From a virus, in IMG/VR virus record IMGVR_UViG_3300013118_000263, positions 1-24,069 of that record: a stretch of DNA of 24,069 bases; one strand, 5' to 3'. The notes under the pieces were generated by a model. That model was not told the origin of the DNA. It did no database searches and saw only the letters and a program-made list of their open reading frames with translations. Each line of letters starts with the position of its first letter. Positions within the stretch are counted from its first letter, which is position 1. A program made the position numbers and the translations under genes. Shown piece after piece: positions 2,989-12,925 of the stretch.

Positions 2989-4569
2989 TTGACTTGGAAG
3001 AGCCGTTTGGCAAATAGTTTAGGCAAATTGGGTATTCAATCCGAATCTCCTTATCAAAGAAATAATGGAACGTCAGTAGATGTTCATGCTTTACAAGACG
3101 CCATGAGTGGTTTTTCTCAGCCAGTTTGGGGAGCAGAAATTAATACAGTTGGAGCATATTCCCGTGAAGGTTATACTTCTAAAACTAGAGATACACCTGT
3201 CGTCAAATTTAGAACTCAAGCAAAGGCTATGGAACAAGATGAGGACGTTCAACTAGCAATTAATCACTTATCATCTAAAGTTACAGGAGGAGCGCATTAT
3301 TGGAAGGCTCAAGACGATATGGTTGAAGATCATATTTCTAAATTCTCTAAACAAATTGACTTTGATTGGTTTGATACTATTTTGGTTAAGGAATTATTAG
3401 GCTATGGAAATTCAGTTTGGAAACCACGTTTGGGAATTGCTAACATTAGAAATAAAGACGATTTAATGCAGATACCAATTTCATCTTTTGTCGCAGTATG
3501 GTGGGACAGGCAAAGACGTCCTTACAAGTATGAATTTAGAGGAGCAGAATATCAAGGCTATCATAATCCTCAAGACATTATTGCTTTTAATTGGAATCCA
3601 GTAAATGGTAGTGTAATTGGTAATGGCTTCATTACTGCTTTAACAGTGCAAAAAACATTTGATCAAATTACACCGGCAGGAACTGAAACTAACACTTTGC
3701 CTTCACTACTTGATAGAAAATACTCAACTCACATGACCATGCACATAGCAGAAAGAAGATACATTCCTCATAATGTCTATGTCGCAGAAGGAGCAAACCA
3801 AGATGAAAGATCTCAACTTGCTAGTGATGTAAATACGCTTAATCCGGGTGAGGACTTTGTAGTTGGTAAGAAAGTAGAAGTTCAAGAATTAGGATCTGGA
3901 CAGAGAGCCTTTGATCCAACATTATTTAGTGATTTGACTCAAGGAGGAATTTTCAAGGCATTGAATGACTTTAGAGGCAAAATGGCGCAAGAGAGTTCAC
4001 ATCAATTTGCCAATGCCGAAGAATCATCAGTGTTAGACGAAATTGGGCTTGCGTCCTTCCCATTAGCAGTCACTAGACAACTTGAAGCCAAACTTTTCAA
4101 ACCTTGGTATAATTCCAATCCTATGTATTCAGCCAATTATGGAGGAGGATTAATCTCAATGCCTTATGAGGAATGTGAATACGAACTTAACTTTGGACGA
4201 CAAAAGAAAGTCGATATTGAACCTGAACAGGCTATGAAATTAATTGAAATAGGTATTAGTTCAGGAGCAATTCAAGATCCTAATGAGATAAGAGAATTGC
4301 TTGAAGATCATGGACTAGGATTAAGAAAAGAATTTGCAATGGCTCTAATGAATCAATATAATCCTGTCATGCCCGGAATGCCTCAAGTAATGCCTCAACA
4401 ACCATACCAATTCGATAATCAAACAATGGGCAATCCTCCAATGAACAATCAGAATTATAATACAGAAGGCAATAGATTTGTCCCTGAAAGATATGACGGT
4501 CAACCTTCCAATCCAAGACAAAACTTTGCTTGGACTAAAACGCAGTACACGAAAAAACCTCAATTATAG
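2989..4569 (+). CDS. Portal protein (526 aa)
   Basis: The portal forms the dodecameric ring at one head vertex through which terminase packages DNA and to which the tail attaches. Length fits the family. After an N-terminal arm, the wing/stem-like core contains the portal-style segments VWWDRQRRPYKYEF and IAFNWNPVNGSVIGNGF at about residues 166-215, then a helical region and an HQFANAEESSVLDE segment. The last 70 residues are rich in Pro, Gln, Met and Asn and look disordered. The TTG start is chosen because it lies 29 nt after the shared promoter element and no ATG is better placed. The next gene starts 2 nt after the stop, so portal, ADP-ribosyltransferase-like and protease genes form one unit. 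The call rests on order and motifs. Confidence 0.85.
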   Translation: MTWKSRLANSLGKLGIQSESPYQRNNGTSVDVHALQDAMSGFSQPVWGAEINTVGAYSREGYTSKTRDTPVVKFRTQAKAMEQDEDVQLAINHLSSKVTGGAHYWKAQDDMVEDHISKFSKQIDFDWFDTILVKELLGYGNSVWKPRLGIANIRNKDDLMQIPISSFVAVWWDRQRRPYKYEFRGAEYQGYHNPQDIIAFNWNPVNGSVIGNGFITALTVQKTFDQITPAGTETNTLPSLLDRKYSTHMTMHIAERRYIPHNVYVAEGANQDERSQLASDVNTLNPGEDFVVGKKVEVQELGSGQRAFDPTLFSDLTQGGIFKALNDFRGKMAQESSHQFANAEESSVLDEIGLASFPLAVTRQLEAKLFKPWYNSNPMYSANYGGGLISMPYEECEYELNFGRQKKVDIEPEQAMKLIEIGISSGAIQDPNEIRELLEDHGLGLRKEFAMALMNQYNPVMPGMPQVMPQQPYQFDNQTMGNPPMNNQNYNTEGNRFVPERYDGQPSNPRQNFAWTKTQYTKKPQL

Positions 4570-4571
4570 TA

Positions 4572-6107
4572 ATGGACGAATCAATAGCAATCTCCGGTAA
4601 TTTATCAAGAGTAAAAATTGGAGAAACTGTTTACATGGGTAGGAATATCTCAAGAGATCTTTCTGATAGAATTAATGAAAGAGCAGAAGAATTAGCAAAA
4701 TATGATTTAACGGAATCAGAAATTATGTTCCAAATTATGAAAGAGTTTGCTAATGGCTCTCATCACGATTTAGCAAGAGAAGATTGGGGAGATACAAATG
4801 GTGAATATGATGAAGCCGGCAATCAAACCAATAGTGTCGTAGATACAGGCAAACCGTCCGGCTATTTAGGAGATGATACAAATTGGACGGCAACCGGAGC
4901 AAAGATCAATTCAGAGCCATATCCAACTAATTTAGAACCGGCTATCAATCAAAGAAATATTCCGGAGGAGTCATATTTTCCAGAAACTCCATTGTATGAG
5001 GCAAGAAGTAATGAAAGACACGATATGCCTGATTTACTAAAAAAGAGCAATAAAGACGATCAACCCTACATACCTGTAAGAATTATCAATGATGATTTGG
5101 AAATGGAAGTTCCAAAGAATGAGCAGATTGAAGATTTAGCAGATGAGGAAGGTGAGCCGGATAAACTGTATTTGGAAACTCCTGAACTAGATGAAACAGA
5201 AGATCCTATTACAGAAACTGATGATGATATTACTTGGATAACAGTAAAAGGCTCTCATATTCCTGTAAAAAAAGGTGAATCTAATGAGGTGGCTATCAGC
5301 AATTTCTTTCACGAAAAACATAAGAAAAGAAAAGCAGATGAGAAAAAAACTCGAGATGATAATAGACGAAGCAAACAAGATCTAATGAAATATGGATTAG
5401 ATAAGGGTAAAATCAAAACACTAGAAAATAACTACATGAAATCAGATTTATCTATCACAGGTAAAAAATTTGAAACTCATGAAATAACTAAAAGTGAATA
5501 TAGAAAGTTAATGGGAAATATTGGCGCAGTTGAATATGATATGGCATTAAGAGATTCAAATCATAAAGAAGCAGATAAAATATTTATGAATGCCATTAAG
5601 AAGGATTCTGAAAAACTAAATCAATTCAAGAAGGAAATGGAGAATGTAATAGCATTTAACAATGTATTGAAGGATAAGTTAGATAAAGCAACTCATGTTT
5701 ATAGATTTGTGTCATTTTCAGAATTGGGTAATATGGTAGATGATGGAGTATTTGAAAATAAATATTCTGACTTTAAATCGTTCACTGTTGAGAAACAATC
5801 AGATTATTTTAGTGAAAGAGATGTAACAATATCTGTTCCAACAAAAGATATTAAAAATGAATTAACTCCTTTAGAATATACACCGTTTTTTAGAAATACG
5901 GATTATTCAAATGAAAAATTAGGAGATTCTAAAAACTCTGAATTTGCTTCTGAAACAGAAGTAAGAATGAAAAATAATACTAAGATACCAAAAGGACTAT
6001 CCATAACAATTAACACATCTGTTTCAGAAAGTAAGAAAAAAAGAATACAAGAAAGATATGGAAGTCTTGGTAAAATAACATTTGCAGATGAGGAATGGTC
6101 ACCATGA
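4572..6107 (+). CDS. Head-module protein with C-terminal ADP-ribosyltransferase-like domain (511 aa)
   Basis: Three parts are visible. Residues 1-220 are acidic and low in structure, with a helical N-terminus. Residues 222-237 read TWITVKGSHIPVKKGE, like the G-x-H-[IV]-P-[IV] element I associate with phage minor-head proteins (recall, not checked). Residues 245-372 are Lys/Glu-rich and helical. The C-terminal 135 residues carry the R-S-E signature of ADP-ribosyltransferases: VYRF with Arg378, KSFT with Ser403 and Thr405, and SETEVRM with Glu461-x-Glu463 followed by NNTKI, in the right order and spacing. Such enzymes move ADP-ribose from NAD+ to a target. Lying directly between portal and MuF/protease genes, it may be packaged in the head and injected. 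The 3' half is clearly more AT-rich (about 27% G+C in samples at 5641-5820, against about 43% at 4861-4920), hinting at a separately acquired domain. The fold assignment is by motif only. Confidence 0.7.
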   Translation: MDESIAISGNLSRVKIGETVYMGRNISRDLSDRINERAEELAKYDLTESEIMFQIMKEFANGSHHDLAREDWGDTNGEYDEAGNQTNSVVDTGKPSGYLGDDTNWTATGAKINSEPYPTNLEPAINQRNIPEESYFPETPLYEARSNERHDMPDLLKKSNKDDQPYIPVRIINDDLEMEVPKNEQIEDLADEEGEPDKLYLETPELDETEDPITETDDDITWITVKGSHIPVKKGESNEVAISNFFHEKHKKRKADEKKTRDDNRRSKQDLMKYGLDKGKIKTLENNYMKSDLSITGKKFETHEITKSEYRKLMGNIGAVEYDMALRDSNHKEADKIFMNAIKKDSEKLNQFKKEMENVIAFNNVLKDKLDKATHVYRFVSFSELGNMVDDGVFENKYSDFKSFTVEKQSDYFSERDVTISVPTKDIKNELTPLEYTPFFRNTDYSNEKLGDSKNSEFASETEVRMKNNTKIPKGLSITINTSVSESKKKRIQERYGSLGKITFADEEWSP

Positions 6108-7258
6108 GTGAGTATAATGGATCATCGAGAGATCCTAAAATCAACCCTATTGTTGCTATTTTAAGTAAACGTGATTCTATGATGAAAGGTAATGTAATGT
6201 CACAGATACAAACTTGGTATGATGTAGATCCTGAACCTATTTTCAATGCCTCAATGGAAAATAATATTATTAAAGTTAAAGATGATTATTGGTCATTATC
6301 AGAACCACATATCAAGGAAACAAAACAAGAACAAAACCTAGCAACCTTCATTTATCTTGAGAAGGGTAATTGCCCTATTTGTAAGCCGTTTAGCAAGAAA
6401 GTATTTGATCTAAATGATAAAGTTCATCGTCCTATTATCCCAAGTGAAGGATTAGGATATACAACAACTCACCCAAACTGCTTATGTCAATATAAGGAAG
6501 TAAAAACCACTAAAAAGAAAACTAGCGTATTAACAAAGAAACAGCAAAAGACTTCAACTGCTATAATTAGAGATATTGGAAGGCAAGCCAAGAAGGGCAA
6601 ACTCCATACAGTTCATCAAGACGGACACATGAGTAAAAGGACAAGAAAGACTAATCCAATTTATGAGATGATTAAACTAAGAGAATCAGTTACAGGAATC
6701 AAAAAAGACTTTCAGTGGCTAACAGAATCATATATTTCAAGACTCAAGAAAGTATCTCAAAAAGAAGGTGGTAAATGGCTTATCATAAGAGCCAGTGAAG
6801 AAACTGTCACTGACCATAGAAGTGAAGGAGAACCGTATAGACGTAAACTATCAGGCATGGAATTATTTGCTACAACTAGAACCTCCATAGGCAAGGATAT
6901 GGACATTAATCATTATGGAAGGGATTATGCGACAGGAGGTAAAATTGTTGACGCAGAATATGATCCAGAATTGGGACAATCTCAAATGCTAGTTCTTGAA
7001 CAAGATCCAGAAATATTGGACGCCATTAAGGACGGAACCATTGATGCTGTATCTATTAACGGTGGTGCGCCAAGAGAGTCTAACATTGAATGTGGATCAG
7101 ATGAGTGTTTTGTAGTCCCTAAAGGAGTGGTTTTGGGTGAAGATGATGGAATAGCATTGACTTATGTAGTGACCAATCCTCAAGGAATGTATTGGAAAGG
7201 CAAACACATACCAAACGCAGAGCCGGGAGTCAAGACAACCAAAATAGAAATTCTTTAG
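6104..7258 (+). CDS. MuF-tail / prohead maturation protease fusion (384 aa)
   Basis: The start at 6104 is preferred over 6095 because ATGA overlaps the upstream stop. Residues 85-130 hold C90PIC93 and H123PNC126LC128, the pattern that ends many MuF (SPP1 gp7-like) minor head proteins. A basic linker rich in Lys and Thr follows (131-185). The C-terminal half (225-360) resembles capsid maturation proteases: NHYG with His270, GGKIVDAEYDPE, then DAIKDGTIDAVSING with Ser317, matching the His/Ser order of HK97-type prohead proteases. Such enzymes cut scaffold and capsid termini before the shell expands. In most phages MuF and protease are separate genes, so the fusion is unusual. The order portal, MuF, protease, scaffold, capsid is kept. 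Protease call is good; MuF part rests on the Cys/His pattern. Confidence 0.78.
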   Translation: MSEYNGSSRDPKINPIVAILSKRDSMMKGNVMSQIQTWYDVDPEPIFNASMENNIIKVKDDYWSLSEPHIKETKQEQNLATFIYLEKGNCPICKPFSKKVFDLNDKVHRPIIPSEGLGYTTTHPNCLCQYKEVKTTKKKTSVLTKKQQKTSTAIIRDIGRQAKKGKLHTVHQDGHMSKRTRKTNPIYEMIKLRESVTGIKKDFQWLTESYISRLKKVSQKEGGKWLIIRASEETVTDHRSEGEPYRRKLSGMELFATTRTSIGKDMDINHYGRDYATGGKIVDAEYDPELGQSQMLVLEQDPEILDAIKDGTIDAVSINGGAPRESNIECGSDECFVVPKGVVLGEDDGIALTYVVTNPQGMYWKGKHIPNAEPGVKTTKIEIL

Positions 7259-9455: not shown

Positions 9456-10631
9456 ATGACATACAAGGACAAATACACACGCAGTTCAATACTTGATCTC
9501 CCAGAGTTCAACCACGTTAAAGAAACACTCCAAGTGAGTGCAGAAATTCGTGCTAACGCAGGAGAGGAGTTCAACATTTGGAAGCCTATTAGAGAAACAC
9601 CACTCAAACTATTCTTCGATAAATCCGAAGGATCTATGCTACAAAACCGTCCAAACCCACATCTTTCTGAGATTTGGAAAAGACAGTTTGGTATTCGAAT
9701 GGGAGATTATGCTAAAGGCAGTGCTTCAAAATTGCAAGAAACAGTTTCTGTTCCCGGCACACTCTCTGCTTTGAAAATTGCAGATGAGATTATCGAAGGC
9801 GCAGAACCTTGGAGTGATTGGAAACAATACTCTCACTTGATCAATATGGACACTCCAAAAGTGAACGTACCAAAGACTAGATACAATAATCAAGTTGGAG
9901 GCGCAAGTGCTGACACCATTAACATCTTCAAAGAAGCAGGAGGAAAACCACCTGTAATGGGAGGTAAAATGGAAACTATTGAGTTGGATTGTAGCAATAC
10001 AGCAAACTCATTTAGAGGCACTATTCAAGTTGAACGTAATGATGTAAAAGACAATAACTTCCTAGCCGTTGAACAACCACTCAAAAACGGTGGAAATCTA
10101 TTCTATTACTTAGCAGGCAAGAGAATCATTGATGATATGGTTACTGATACTGCCACAAATACTGATACAAGAGCCAACTTGGATCTTGGAACAAGTGTTC
10201 ATTCAGAATTTGAAGCACTATCTAACGTTATCAGATCACAATTCCCCGGCACTCAAAGAAATAGAGCAGATACAATGTTCATCAATCCATCTGATGCAAA
10301 TCAGGCAATCAGTACTTCTACTGGCGCAAGTGGAACATATCCATTCTTGTCCAGATTCATACTTGGACCAACTGACGACAGAGATGTTGTTAATAATTCA
10401 GGTTTGGCAGGAGCATTAGGATTGAAAAACGTATGGGAAACACCTCAAATTACAGCAGGAACAGTAATGATCACAAAACGTGACGTTGCACAAGTTGTAG
10501 GTGTAAGAGAAGATCTCACCCTTGAGAACTTTGACCTTACAGTAGGTGGATTGTATAACACTGACTTAGTAATGAGATTTGATGTTCAGGAAGCAGATGA
10601 GAATGGAGCCTACAAGGTAACATCATTCTAG
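9456..10631 (+). CDS. Major capsid protein, HK97 type (391 aa)
   Basis: The shell protein. Length and layout fit the HK97 fold: a charged N-terminal arm, a segment with many Pro/Lys (30-100), then the core with TVSVPGTLSALKIADEIIEGAEPW, ELDCSNTANSFRGTIQVERNDVKD, a helix with LAGKRIIDDMV (spine-helix type), TMFINPSDANQAI (P-domain style, as in families where NP follows a strand) and a C-terminal GVREDLTLENFD...VMRFDVQEADENGAY. This last part matches the strand pair that ends many such capsid proteins. It follows decoration by 2 nt. Codon choice is cleaner than the neighbours (more AAC, GGA, CCA), as expected for a highly made protein. The fold is inferred from order and motifs. Confidence 0.82.
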   Translation: MTYKDKYTRSSILDLPEFNHVKETLQVSAEIRANAGEEFNIWKPIRETPLKLFFDKSEGSMLQNRPNPHLSEIWKRQFGIRMGDYAKGSASKLQETVSVPGTLSALKIADEIIEGAEPWSDWKQYSHLINMDTPKVNVPKTRYNNQVGGASADTINIFKEAGGKPPVMGGKMETIELDCSNTANSFRGTIQVERNDVKDNNFLAVEQPLKNGGNLFYYLAGKRIIDDMVTDTATNTDTRANLDLGTSVHSEFEALSNVIRSQFPGTQRNRADTMFINPSDANQAISTSTGASGTYPFLSRFILGPTDDRDVVNNSGLAGALGLKNVWETPQITAGTVMITKRDVAQVVGVREDLTLENFDLTVGGLYNTDLVMRFDVQEADENGAYKVTSF

Positions 10632-11490: not shown

Positions 11491-12509
11491 AGATTGCAAT
11501 AATGTTTGTAATTGCTTTTCTAGTAGGATCTTATGCCTATGTTTATGCCGAAGAACAAACAGTTGACGAATCAGTTATTGTTCCGTTTGAGTTCAATGGT
11601 AGAGTTTGTGGAATGTTAGAGAATGGTAATTTTGTTTGTGAATGGGATCCATCAATCATTGATCTAAATGATATTATGGCTAACGGAACAACAGCAATCC
11701 CTAATCCAACCGAAGCAAGCACAACCGTTAATCAAACAGAAGCAGAACCTGAACCAACAGTTGAGGAAGAACCTGAAACAATCCTTACAAAGTTTGAGAA
11801 AGATCTTGAAAGATTAGAACAACAAGAAAAACTCAATTCAATAGATAAGGAATATTTGGCGCTGCTAAAGAACTTAGCAGAATGTCAAAGAGGTTATGCT
11901 GAATCATTCGGAGTAATGGAACCCTCATCATTCCCAATATCCTACACTTGGATAAATGATAGAAATGGCGAATCTCCTGAATGGACTAAATCCTTTGATT
12001 ATAAAGGACGACATGCTGAACTCAAAAAAGGTATTGAAGAATGTAAAGCCATTCGCACGATCCTCAATCCAGTGACTTTAGGAGTTTATACATTACACAT
12101 GGGACAACACTTTGGATCTATCCAACCTCATCATTCTGAAAAGGCAATAGTTGATGAAGGTAGATGGCTAGATGTTAAGACTCATGTTCCACTCAATGAA
12201 CACAATTTCATAGAGTCACTTGAGGACGCAAAGAACGCAATTTGTAATCATACCTTATACGAACAACGAACAAAGGATTATGCAAATTGTCCTCCTATCC
12301 AATATCCCGAAGGTGATATTGTAAACCAAAAGAGATTCATCGAATATGGATCATCAGTTGAAGATAAATGGAAAAACTATCTCACTGACGGAGGTTTACA
12401 ACAGGCTAAGCAAATAATGGGTGAAAAACTAAGAGAGAAGGCAGAACAACTTAGAGAAACCCAAGCAATACAAAGTCAACAATACACTGGCGAAGGTTAC
12501 GGACAATGA
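11487..12509 (+). CDS. Secreted coiled-coil protein (340 aa)
   Basis: The N-terminus is a clear Sec signal peptide: MK, a hydrophobic core (IAIMFVIAFLVGSYAYV) and a likely cut after YA at about residue 21, before EEQ. The mature part starts with a small two-Cys domain (VCGMLENGNFVC), then an acidic Pro/Thr/Glu linker (70-98), a charged coiled coil (100-130), a His-rich middle (YTLHMGQHFGSIQPHH) and a helical Gln/Glu-rich C-terminus. The Cys residues come in pairs, suiting disulphides outside the cell. GAGGAG (11473-11478) lies 8 nt before the ATG. It overlaps the regulator and the zincin gene (ATGA both times), so the three are made together. It may act on or bind the S-layer; no family recognised. 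Confidence 0.72.
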   Translation: MKIAIMFVIAFLVGSYAYVYAEEQTVDESVIVPFEFNGRVCGMLENGNFVCEWDPSIIDLNDIMANGTTAIPNPTEASTTVNQTEAEPEPTVEEEPETILTKFEKDLERLEQQEKLNSIDKEYLALLKNLAECQRGYAESFGVMEPSSFPISYTWINDRNGESPEWTKSFDYKGRHAELKKGIEECKAIRTILNPVTLGVYTLHMGQHFGSIQPHHSEKAIVDEGRWLDVKTHVPLNEHNFIESLEDAKNAICNHTLYEQRTKDYANCPPIQYPEGDIVNQKRFIEYGSSVEDKWKNYLTDGGLQQAKQIMGEKLREKAEQLRETQAIQSQQYTGEGYGQ

Positions 12510-12925
12510 GTCCAACCACTTTATTTTTTCTAATCGTAGTTATAGCAATTTTTGTAATTGGAGTCATGAAAGTTTATGGGGATACTCCGGACGAAATTAT
12601 TTGGGCAGTAAATGAAGAACATGGATTGAGAGCCGTCCCGATTTACTATGTAGATGAGATTGAAAATCATGGAGAGCATACTAAAGGTGTTTACAATCCT
12701 GTATTAGATGAAATTAGAATACTTAAAGGAGTAGGCGATTTTTATGCTGTTCCCGGTTGCACTATTCGAGATCACGAAATATTACATGCTTGGGGATATG
12801 ACCACGTATCCATGCAGGAGTTTAATTGCCCAAATCCAAACGTAGATTATGACGCTTTACAGTATAGAGAAACTTTTGTTAAACACTGGAATCCGAATTA
12901 TGAGTGGAATGGTTATGAACGATAA
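12506..12925 (+). CDS. Membrane-anchored metzincin-like zinc protease (139 aa)
   Basis: An N-terminal hydrophobic segment (residues 5-21, LFFLIVVIAIFVIGV) without a clear cut site should anchor the protein with the rest outside the cell. Residues 90-100 read HEILHAWGYDH, a full HExxHxxGxxH motif: His90, His94 and His100 as zinc ligands and Glu91 as the catalytic base, as in metzincins. Met103 soon after could relate to the Met-turn, though closer than usual. Cys85 and Cys108 flank the site and could be bridged. At 139 residues it is far shorter than most metzincins. It overlaps the secreted-protein gene (ATGA). A cell-surface protease that loosens the S-layer for virus exit or entry fits the context; this is inference. 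Confidence 0.8.
   Translation: MSPTTLFFLIVVIAIFVIGVMKVYGDTPDEIIWAVNEEHGLRAVPIYYVDEIENHGEHTKGVYNPVLDEIRILKGVGDFYAVPGCTIRDHEILHAWGYDHVSMQEFNCPNPNVDYDALQYRETFVKHWNPNYEWNGYER

What the first reader, a model, noticed from the sequence alone, without database searches (positions are those of the whole stretch)
5694..6107. ADP-ribosyltransferase-like domain encoded between portal and protease in an archaeal virus
Residues 376-470 of the 511-aa protein show Arg378 in VYRF, KSFT (403-405) and ETE (461-463) followed by VRMKNNTKI: the R-S-E signature in correct order and spacing. Phage ADP-ribosyltransferases linked to MuF-type head proteins are known in bacteria and may be packaged and injected; an archaeal virus version would be a new effector of host takeover. 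Upstream residues 222-237 contain a G-x-H-I-P-V element that may mark head targeting.
Basis: partly seen in the sequence, partly recalled or inferred. Interest (0 to 1): 0.85.

Follow-up and report, generated by a model that had tools for sequence, protein, structure and literature searches.

The report
ART-fold module in archaeal virus head gene
A tailed virus that probably infects archaea carries, between its portal and protease genes, a recently inserted module predicted to fold like enzymes that attach ADP-ribose to host molecules, joined to a head protein by a short linker that in other viruses precedes known toxin domains.

Summary
The loose R-S-E motif alone is weak (33% of shuffles match), and Pfam, PHROGs and my ART profiles miss the domain. 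Better evidence came elsewhere. (1) Three sister viruses (portal 89-91% identical) lack the domain; in them the N-terminal 217 residues run straight into a MuF-motif/protease protein. The window has about 1.1 kb extra, GC 28.5% against 36.7%. (2) The insert begins with the linker WITVKGSHIPVKKGES, which in other viral contigs precedes Gln-amidase, Zeta-toxin, lethal-factor-like and ADP-ribosyltransferase domains. (3) A scan for that linker found one full-length homologue (core score 105 vs 33±6 shuffled). R378, T405 and E463 are conserved; S403 and E461 are not. (4) A two-sequence AlphaFold model (pLDDT 61, pTM 0.53) has only ADP-ribosyltransferase-superfamily chains as its top seven PDB matches (Tpt1 Z 8.6, DarT Z 7.5). 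(5) Related viruses encode archaeal PCNA, MCM and RadA. Best reading: a horizontally swapped ADP-ribosyltransferase effector module on a head protein, probably packaged and injected. Catalysis, packaging and target are untested. New variant of a known kind.

The parts
2989..4569 (+). portal protein gene (526 aa)
Evidence: Position after terminase (phrog_675, 2.4e-15); conserved 91-98% in sister viruses.
4572..5222 (+). ORF1 residues 1-217: conserved N-terminal region of the head protein
   Evidence: 85-99% identical in five related viruses; in sisters L005/L006/L007 it is fused directly to the MuF/protease region.
5223..6328 (+). inserted low-GC segment, absent from sister viruses
   Evidence: Sister alignment breaks at DPITET and resumes at EQNLATF. 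GC 28.5% (5223-6104) and 30.8% (6105-6328) against flanks 36.7% and 37.6% and a window mean of 36.7+-2.3. GAAAC on both edges.
5235..5282 (+). linker WITVKGSHIPVKKGES (residues 222-237)
   Evidence: W, T, G and H invariant (by the pattern used) and I/V, V/I, P near-invariant across 83 distinct occurrences in viral contigs; conservation runs past the searched pattern.
5283..5693 (+). helical region before the ART core (residues 238-374)
   Evidence: AlphaFold helices over residues 331-372; aligned to the homologue L255.
5694..6104 (+). predicted ADP-ribosyltransferase-fold core (residues 375-511; Arg378, Thr405, Glu463)
   Evidence: Homologous to L255 core, Smith-Waterman 105 vs 33+-5.8 shuffled; model pLDDT 61, pTM 0.53; top PDB folds Tpt1/KptA and DarT.
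6104..7258 (+). ORF2: MuF-like CxxC...HPNCxC motif followed by a prohead-protease-like domain; ATG overlaps the ORF1 stop (ATGA)
   Evidence: Family members hit Phage_Mu_F 9e-4, head morphogenesis phrog_4728 1e-9 and head maturation protease phrog_595 4e-6; His and Ser invariant in 19 members. The window protein itself is below threshold.
9456..10631 (+). major capsid protein gene
   Evidence: Position and conservation (54-100% identity in 48 viral loci). No library hit; capsid by context.

Best explanation
The 511-aa protein is a head-associated carrier of an ADP-ribosyltransferase effector. Shown: a foreign, AT-rich cassette (linker, helical region, ART-fold core, then a 75-aa leader for the next gene) is present inside a gene that in sister viruses encodes one N-region/MuF-motif/protease protein, splitting it into two overlapping genes. 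Supported by prediction: the core has the ADP-ribosyltransferase fold and keeps the NAD-binding Arg and the catalytic Glu. Inferred: the N-terminal region takes the protein into the prohead, the prohead protease may free the enzyme at the linker, and it enters the cell with the DNA, where it uses NAD+ to ADP-ribosylate an unknown host protein or nucleic acid early in infection. The host is most likely an archaeon.
For: Insertion relative to sisters and GC minimum of the window over the insert. The homologue L255 carries the same linker and core in a virus whose portal and capsid are unrelated by tblastn, which indicates module transfer. Fold: all top seven PDB matches are ADP-ribosyltransferase-superfamily chains, VIA Z 8.6 and 7.5, whereas the poor single-sequence model gave none. 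The same linker precedes PF03496 (3e-13) and PF01129 (3.7e-5) domains in other viruses, plus Gln-amidase, Zeta-toxin, lethal-factor-like, MuF and maturation-protease domains. Known parallel: MuF or protease fused to VIP2-like ADP-ribosyltransferase in Microbacterium and Arthrobacter phages. The cassette is intact in three viruses with only synonymous changes. Related viruses encode archaeal PCNA, MCM and RadA.
Against: No significant Pfam, PHROG or PDB sequence match. Profiles built from phage VIP2-like and T4 Mod enzymes rank the protein about 83rd, 58th and 78th of 815 ORFs, and hhalign probability is 7% at most. Ser403 and Glu461 are D and Q in the only homologue. The model is of modest confidence and rests on two sequences. 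Nothing shows that the protein is in the virion. Host assignment is indirect.
Confidence: 0.6

Rival explanations
1. The domain is an ADP-ribosyltransferase but a nucleic-acid-acting one (DarT- or Tpt1-like): it modifies or repairs DNA or RNA, for example as counter-defence, rather than modifying host proteins.
For: The best structural matches are Tpt1/KptA and DarT, not protein-modifying toxins.
Against: The R...FT...[EQ]xE layout follows the R-S-E pattern; the fold ranking of a pLDDT 61 model does not fix substrate class.
Confidence: 0.25
2. The domain keeps the ADP-ribosyltransferase fold but is catalytically dead or has become a structural or NAD-sensing part of the head protein.
For: Ser403 and Glu461 are not kept in L255; no profile recognises it.
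Against: Arg378, Thr405, Glu463, the EVRM stretch and the whole core are kept; the other domains found after the linker include known toxins.
Confidence: 0.15
3. The domain is not an ADP-ribosyltransferase; the motif is coincidence and the fold match an artefact of a weak model.
For: The loose motif is common by chance; sequence profiles fail; Foldseek E is only 2.8e-3.
Against: A search that knew nothing of the motif ranked seven ADP-ribosyltransferase-superfamily chains first, and Tpt1 and DarT fill the head of the VIA list with unrelated folds at Z about 3 or less; the hhalign path pairs Arg with Arg, SFT with STS and ETE with the ExE region.
Confidence: 0.13
4. It is an ADP-ribosyltransferase made late in the infected cell and not packaged, acting from within (for example against superinfecting elements).
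For: No direct packaging evidence; ORF1 lost its physical link to the MuF motif and protease.
Against: It is still fused to the N-terminal head-protein region conserved in sisters, sits in the head gene cluster, and the linker recurs in polypeptides with head and protease domains.
Confidence: 0.2

Closest known systems
MuF/protease-VIP2 ADP-ribosyltransferase fusions of actinobacteriophages (Microbacterium phage Percival gp4, Goodman gp5; Arthrobacter phage Elezi gp4)
   Same: ADP-ribosyltransferase domain carried by a head protein encoded between portal and capsid genes, with MuF or maturation protease; a related phage lacks the domain (Floof versus Percival, PMC7302621).
   Different: Those are PF03496 members (3e-20, 5e-22) in phages of bacteria, in one polypeptide with MuF or protease; here the domain is outside PF03496, in a separate ORF, behind the GxHIP linker, in a probable archaeal virus.
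MuF polymorphic toxins (Jamet et al. 2017, PMC5576092)
   Same: Variable toxin domain attached to a MuF-locus head protein, proposed injection; 14% are putative ADP-ribosyltransferases.
   Different: MuF motif not in the same polypeptide in the window, no small immunity ORF downstream, lysogeny unknown.
T4 Alt/ModA/ModB and Alt/VIP2 family (PMC9503650)
   Same: R-S-E layout; ModB has YRG, SFT and EQE in the same order. Alt is head-packaged and injected (established knowledge).
   Different: No significant profile similarity; different gene context.
DarT and Tpt1/KptA
   Same: Closest folds to the model.
   Different: About 6-12% identity, different catalytic motifs and context; no macrodomain partner (DarG) seen in the window.
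ADP-ribosyltransferase genes of haloarchaeal tailed viruses HVTV-1 and HCTV-5 (PMC8651126)
   Same: ADP-ribosyltransferase in an archaeal tailed virus.
   Different: No significant match to any record when the insert or L255 was compared with the phage collection; no head-gene linkage in the passage read.

Membership tests
ADP-ribosyltransferase superfamily (R-S-E type) | ADP-ribosyltransferase fold | tested here: met
   Model m229390af8603: top 7 PDB matches all ADP-ribosyltransferase superfamily, VIA Z 8.6/7.5; caveat pLDDT 61, pTM 0.53.
ADP-ribosyltransferase superfamily (R-S-E type) | conserved Arg, S/T-x-S/T, [EQ]-x-E | tested here: inconclusive
   R378, T405, E463 conserved in L255; S403 is D and E461 is Q there.
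ADP-ribosyltransferase superfamily (R-S-E type) | Arg and Glu adjacent in the active site | not testable with these tools
   Model coordinates are not exposed to scripts.
ADP-ribosyltransferase superfamily (R-S-E type) | NAD+-dependent ADP-ribose transfer | not testable with these tools
   Needs biochemistry.
PF03496 / PF01129 (VIP2-like, ART) | match to the family profile | tested here: not met
   Not listed with max E 10; own VIP2-like profile 0.1-1.2 bits.
MuF polymorphic toxins | MuF domain and toxin in one polypeptide | tested here: not met
   The MuF-like motif is in the next ORF; in sisters it is joined to the same N-terminal region.
MuF polymorphic toxins | small immunity ORF directly downstream | tested here: not met
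   ORF1 stop overlaps the start of the 384-aa MuF/protease ORF.
MuF polymorphic toxins | temperate phage | not tested
   The window holds mostly structural genes.
Virion-packaged, injected ADP-ribosyltransferases (T4 Alt type) | protein present in virion and injected | not testable with these tools
   Needs virion proteomics; only gene context and linker point to it.
Archaeal tailed viruses (Caudoviricetes) | HK97-type head/tail module | tested here: met
   Terminase phrog_675 2.4e-15; MuF/protease family; cement protein PF09956 1.9e-5.
Archaeal tailed viruses (Caudoviricetes) | archaeal host | tested here: inconclusive
   Four relatives (capsid 61-72% identical) were scanned; archaeal PCNA x2, MCM, RadA found among them; no provirus or genome match.

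The most novel reading that the evidence does not exclude
The W[IV]T[VI]xGxHIP element is a general joint used by tailed viruses of both bacteria and archaea to attach, and perhaps to dock or release by processing, virion-delivered effector domains. The window's protein would then be an archaeal-virus case with a new ADP-ribosyltransferase family, and the linker could be used to find unknown injected effectors.
Probability: 0.35. Interest if true: 0.78.

Novelty: new variant of a known kind. Interest (0 to 1): 0.6.

Why it matters
Head-packaged ADP-ribosyltransferases are a first-strike weapon of bacteriophages; a module of that kind in a probable archaeal virus would extend the strategy across domains and give a first candidate injected enzyme for this virus clade. 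The presence/absence polymorphism between close sisters, the GC step and the shared linker point to effector swapping at one head locus, and the linker offers a sequence handle for finding other such effectors.

Tried and rejected
Chance motif: tested with shuffles; the loose motif is uninformative, the strict one is rare. Pfam, PHROGs and PDB sequence searches of the insert: nothing significant. tblastn of the insert and of L255 in phages and plasmids: nothing significant; the Campylobacter phage hit at E 0.9 was set aside as probable low-complexity noise. Profiles from VIP2-like and T4 Mod enzymes and hhalign: not significant, though the alignment path is in register. Single-sequence AlphaFold of residues 285-511: pLDDT 46.7, Foldseek without meaning. 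Search for the ART region in 49 related viral records: none. Provirus and host search in GTDB contigs with terminase and capsid alignments: none. Pfam MuF scan of the window record: none. Programmed frameshift between ORF1 and ORF2: not pursued, the ATGA overlap explains the arrangement.

Full report
Observation. The 511-aa ORF (4572-6107) lies between the portal ORF and an ORF (start 6104 or 6095, to 7258) with a MuF-like CxxC...HPNCxC motif and a protease-like domain. By itself the R-S-E pattern is weak evidence: a loose form occurs in a third of shuffles, a strict form in 0.4%. No profile library recognises the segment, and there is no significant sequence match to a solved structure.

Surroundings. 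The window is a 24,069-base virus record. Two viral contigs carry a near-identical gene, and three sister contigs (portal 89-91% identical) lack the segment. In the sisters the N-terminal 217 or so residues continue directly into the MuF-motif/protease region as one 524-aa protein. In the window the alignment breaks after DPITET and resumes at EQNLATF, 1.1 kb later. The insert has GC 28.5% (ORF1 part) and 30.8% (the 75-residue leader of ORF2) against flanks of 36.7% and 37.6%; it is the GC minimum of the whole window. The two edges share GAAAC. The ORF1 stop and ORF2 start overlap as ATGA. The three viruses with the insert differ within it only by synonymous changes, and the reading frame is intact in all. 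Insertion rather than loss in the sisters is inferred from the GC step.

Head-locus identity. Nineteen members of the ORF2 family from related viruses were aligned. Members match Phage_Mu_F (9e-4), head morphogenesis (phrog_4728, 1e-9) and head maturation protease (phrog_595, 4e-6). The window's own protein falls below threshold, so its identity rests on family membership (46-54% identity to most members).

Host. Four relatives with longer contigs were scanned; archaeal PCNA (two), MCM and RadA were found among them. No genome contig in GTDB matched. An archaeal host is therefore likely but inferred from relatives, not from the window itself.

The linker. A scan of viral contigs for W[IV]T[VI]xGxHIP found 70 stretches, some with up to five copies per locus. 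Over 83 distinct occurrences conservation runs past the searched pattern (I/V/L after HIP, then G and K[ED]xA at set distances). Of 65 downstream segments scanned, several match Gln_amidase papain-fold toxin (5), Zeta toxin (3), ADP-ribosyltransferase (PF01129 in 2, PF03496 in 1), lethal-factor-like peptidase (2), KTSC (3) and MuF (1); PHROGs adds minor head, head morphogenesis and maturation protease families. That it targets proteins to the head is possible but not shown.

Homologue and fold. One linker-bearing contig, L255, matches the insert along its full length (24% identity over 298 residues). Without the linker the core still scores 105 against 33+-5.8 for shuffles. Arg378, Thr405, Glu463 and the EVRM stretch are conserved; Ser403 is Asp and Glu461 is Gln in L255. 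L255 shows no portal or capsid similarity to the window by tblastn but shares one small ORF (27%, 5e-13), so the module has moved between different head backgrounds. AlphaFold on the two-sequence alignment gave pLDDT 61.2 and pTM 0.53, with strands and helices in the ADP-ribosyltransferase order. Foldseek's top seven PDB matches are all ADP-ribosyltransferase-superfamily chains: Tpt1/KptA (E 2.8e-3, probability 0.99) and DarT (best 7.6e-3, 0.97). VIA-align gives Z 8.6 (rmsd 3.0, 105 aligned; Tpt1) and 7.5 (rmsd 3.6, 124 aligned; DarT). The tool warns that Z under 8 can be a common arrangement, so the consistency of the list counts more than any one score. The single-sequence model was useless. 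The Arg-Glu distance could not be measured, since coordinates are not exposed.

Mechanism. Shown: a low-GC cassette within a head gene, a shared effector linker, a conserved core. Predicted: ADP-ribosyltransferase fold with Arg and Glu in place. Inferred from known systems (T4 Alt; MuF toxins, PMC5576092; MuF-linked ADP-ribosyltransferases, PMC9503650): packaging via the N-terminal head-protein region, entry with the DNA, NAD+-dependent modification of a host target. Whether the target is protein or nucleic acid is open, since the nearest folds (DarT, Tpt1) act on nucleic acids.

Comparison. The nearest arrangement is in Microbacterium and Arthrobacter phages, where MuF or maturation protease is fused to a PF03496 ADP-ribosyltransferase and a close relative lacks it (PMC7302621). 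The window differs by sequence family, by the split gene, by the linker and by the probable archaeal host. ADP-ribosyltransferases are already reported in haloarchaeal tailed viruses HVTV-1 and HCTV-5 (PMC8651126). Hence: new variant of a known kind.

Scores (my judgement). Fold ADP-ribosyltransferase-like, about 0.85; catalytically active, about 0.65; virion-packaged effector, about 0.55; archaeal host, about 0.85; the whole explanation 0.6. Interest 0.6.

Noticed in passing
L081:6056-7021 (-) and L081:5480-6050 (contig IMGVR_UViG_3300037247_002298): A clade relative encodes a TIGR-Tas RNA-guided endonuclease (NF052498, 180 bits, cut-off 100) next to an array of about 36-nt-period repeats (TGACTCGTA...GGGTTTCA) that looks like a TIGR guide array; a second member of the scanned set also matched.
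   Followed up: partly
L219:786-1832, L232:4332-5282, L218, L220, L226, L231: Other linker-bearing viral proteins carry ADP-ribosyltransferase domains; the MYRG family (L218/L220/L226/L231) has no ART match in Pfam but aligns to my ADP-ribosyltransferase profile at 84% hhalign probability.
   Followed up: partly
L026:3584-6067: At the same head locus a more distant relative has a different upstream domain behind another phage-type linker (NEGDHPRDKDGEFANKGG), suggesting that the site hosts various modules.
   Followed up: no
L255, L223, L264, L030, L067: A KTSC domain follows variable modules in several of these viruses and is shared between L255-type viruses and the window's clade.
   Followed up: no
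window 12506-12925: Small ORF with an N-terminal hydrophobic stretch and a DHEILHAWGYDH motif, which by eye resembles a zinc peptidase; not tested.
   Followed up: no
L006:4833-5444 and L007:5044-5655: Sister viruses carry a 203-aa ORF downstream of the protease gene that the window lacks; by eye it resembles a glycosyltransferase.
   Followed up: no
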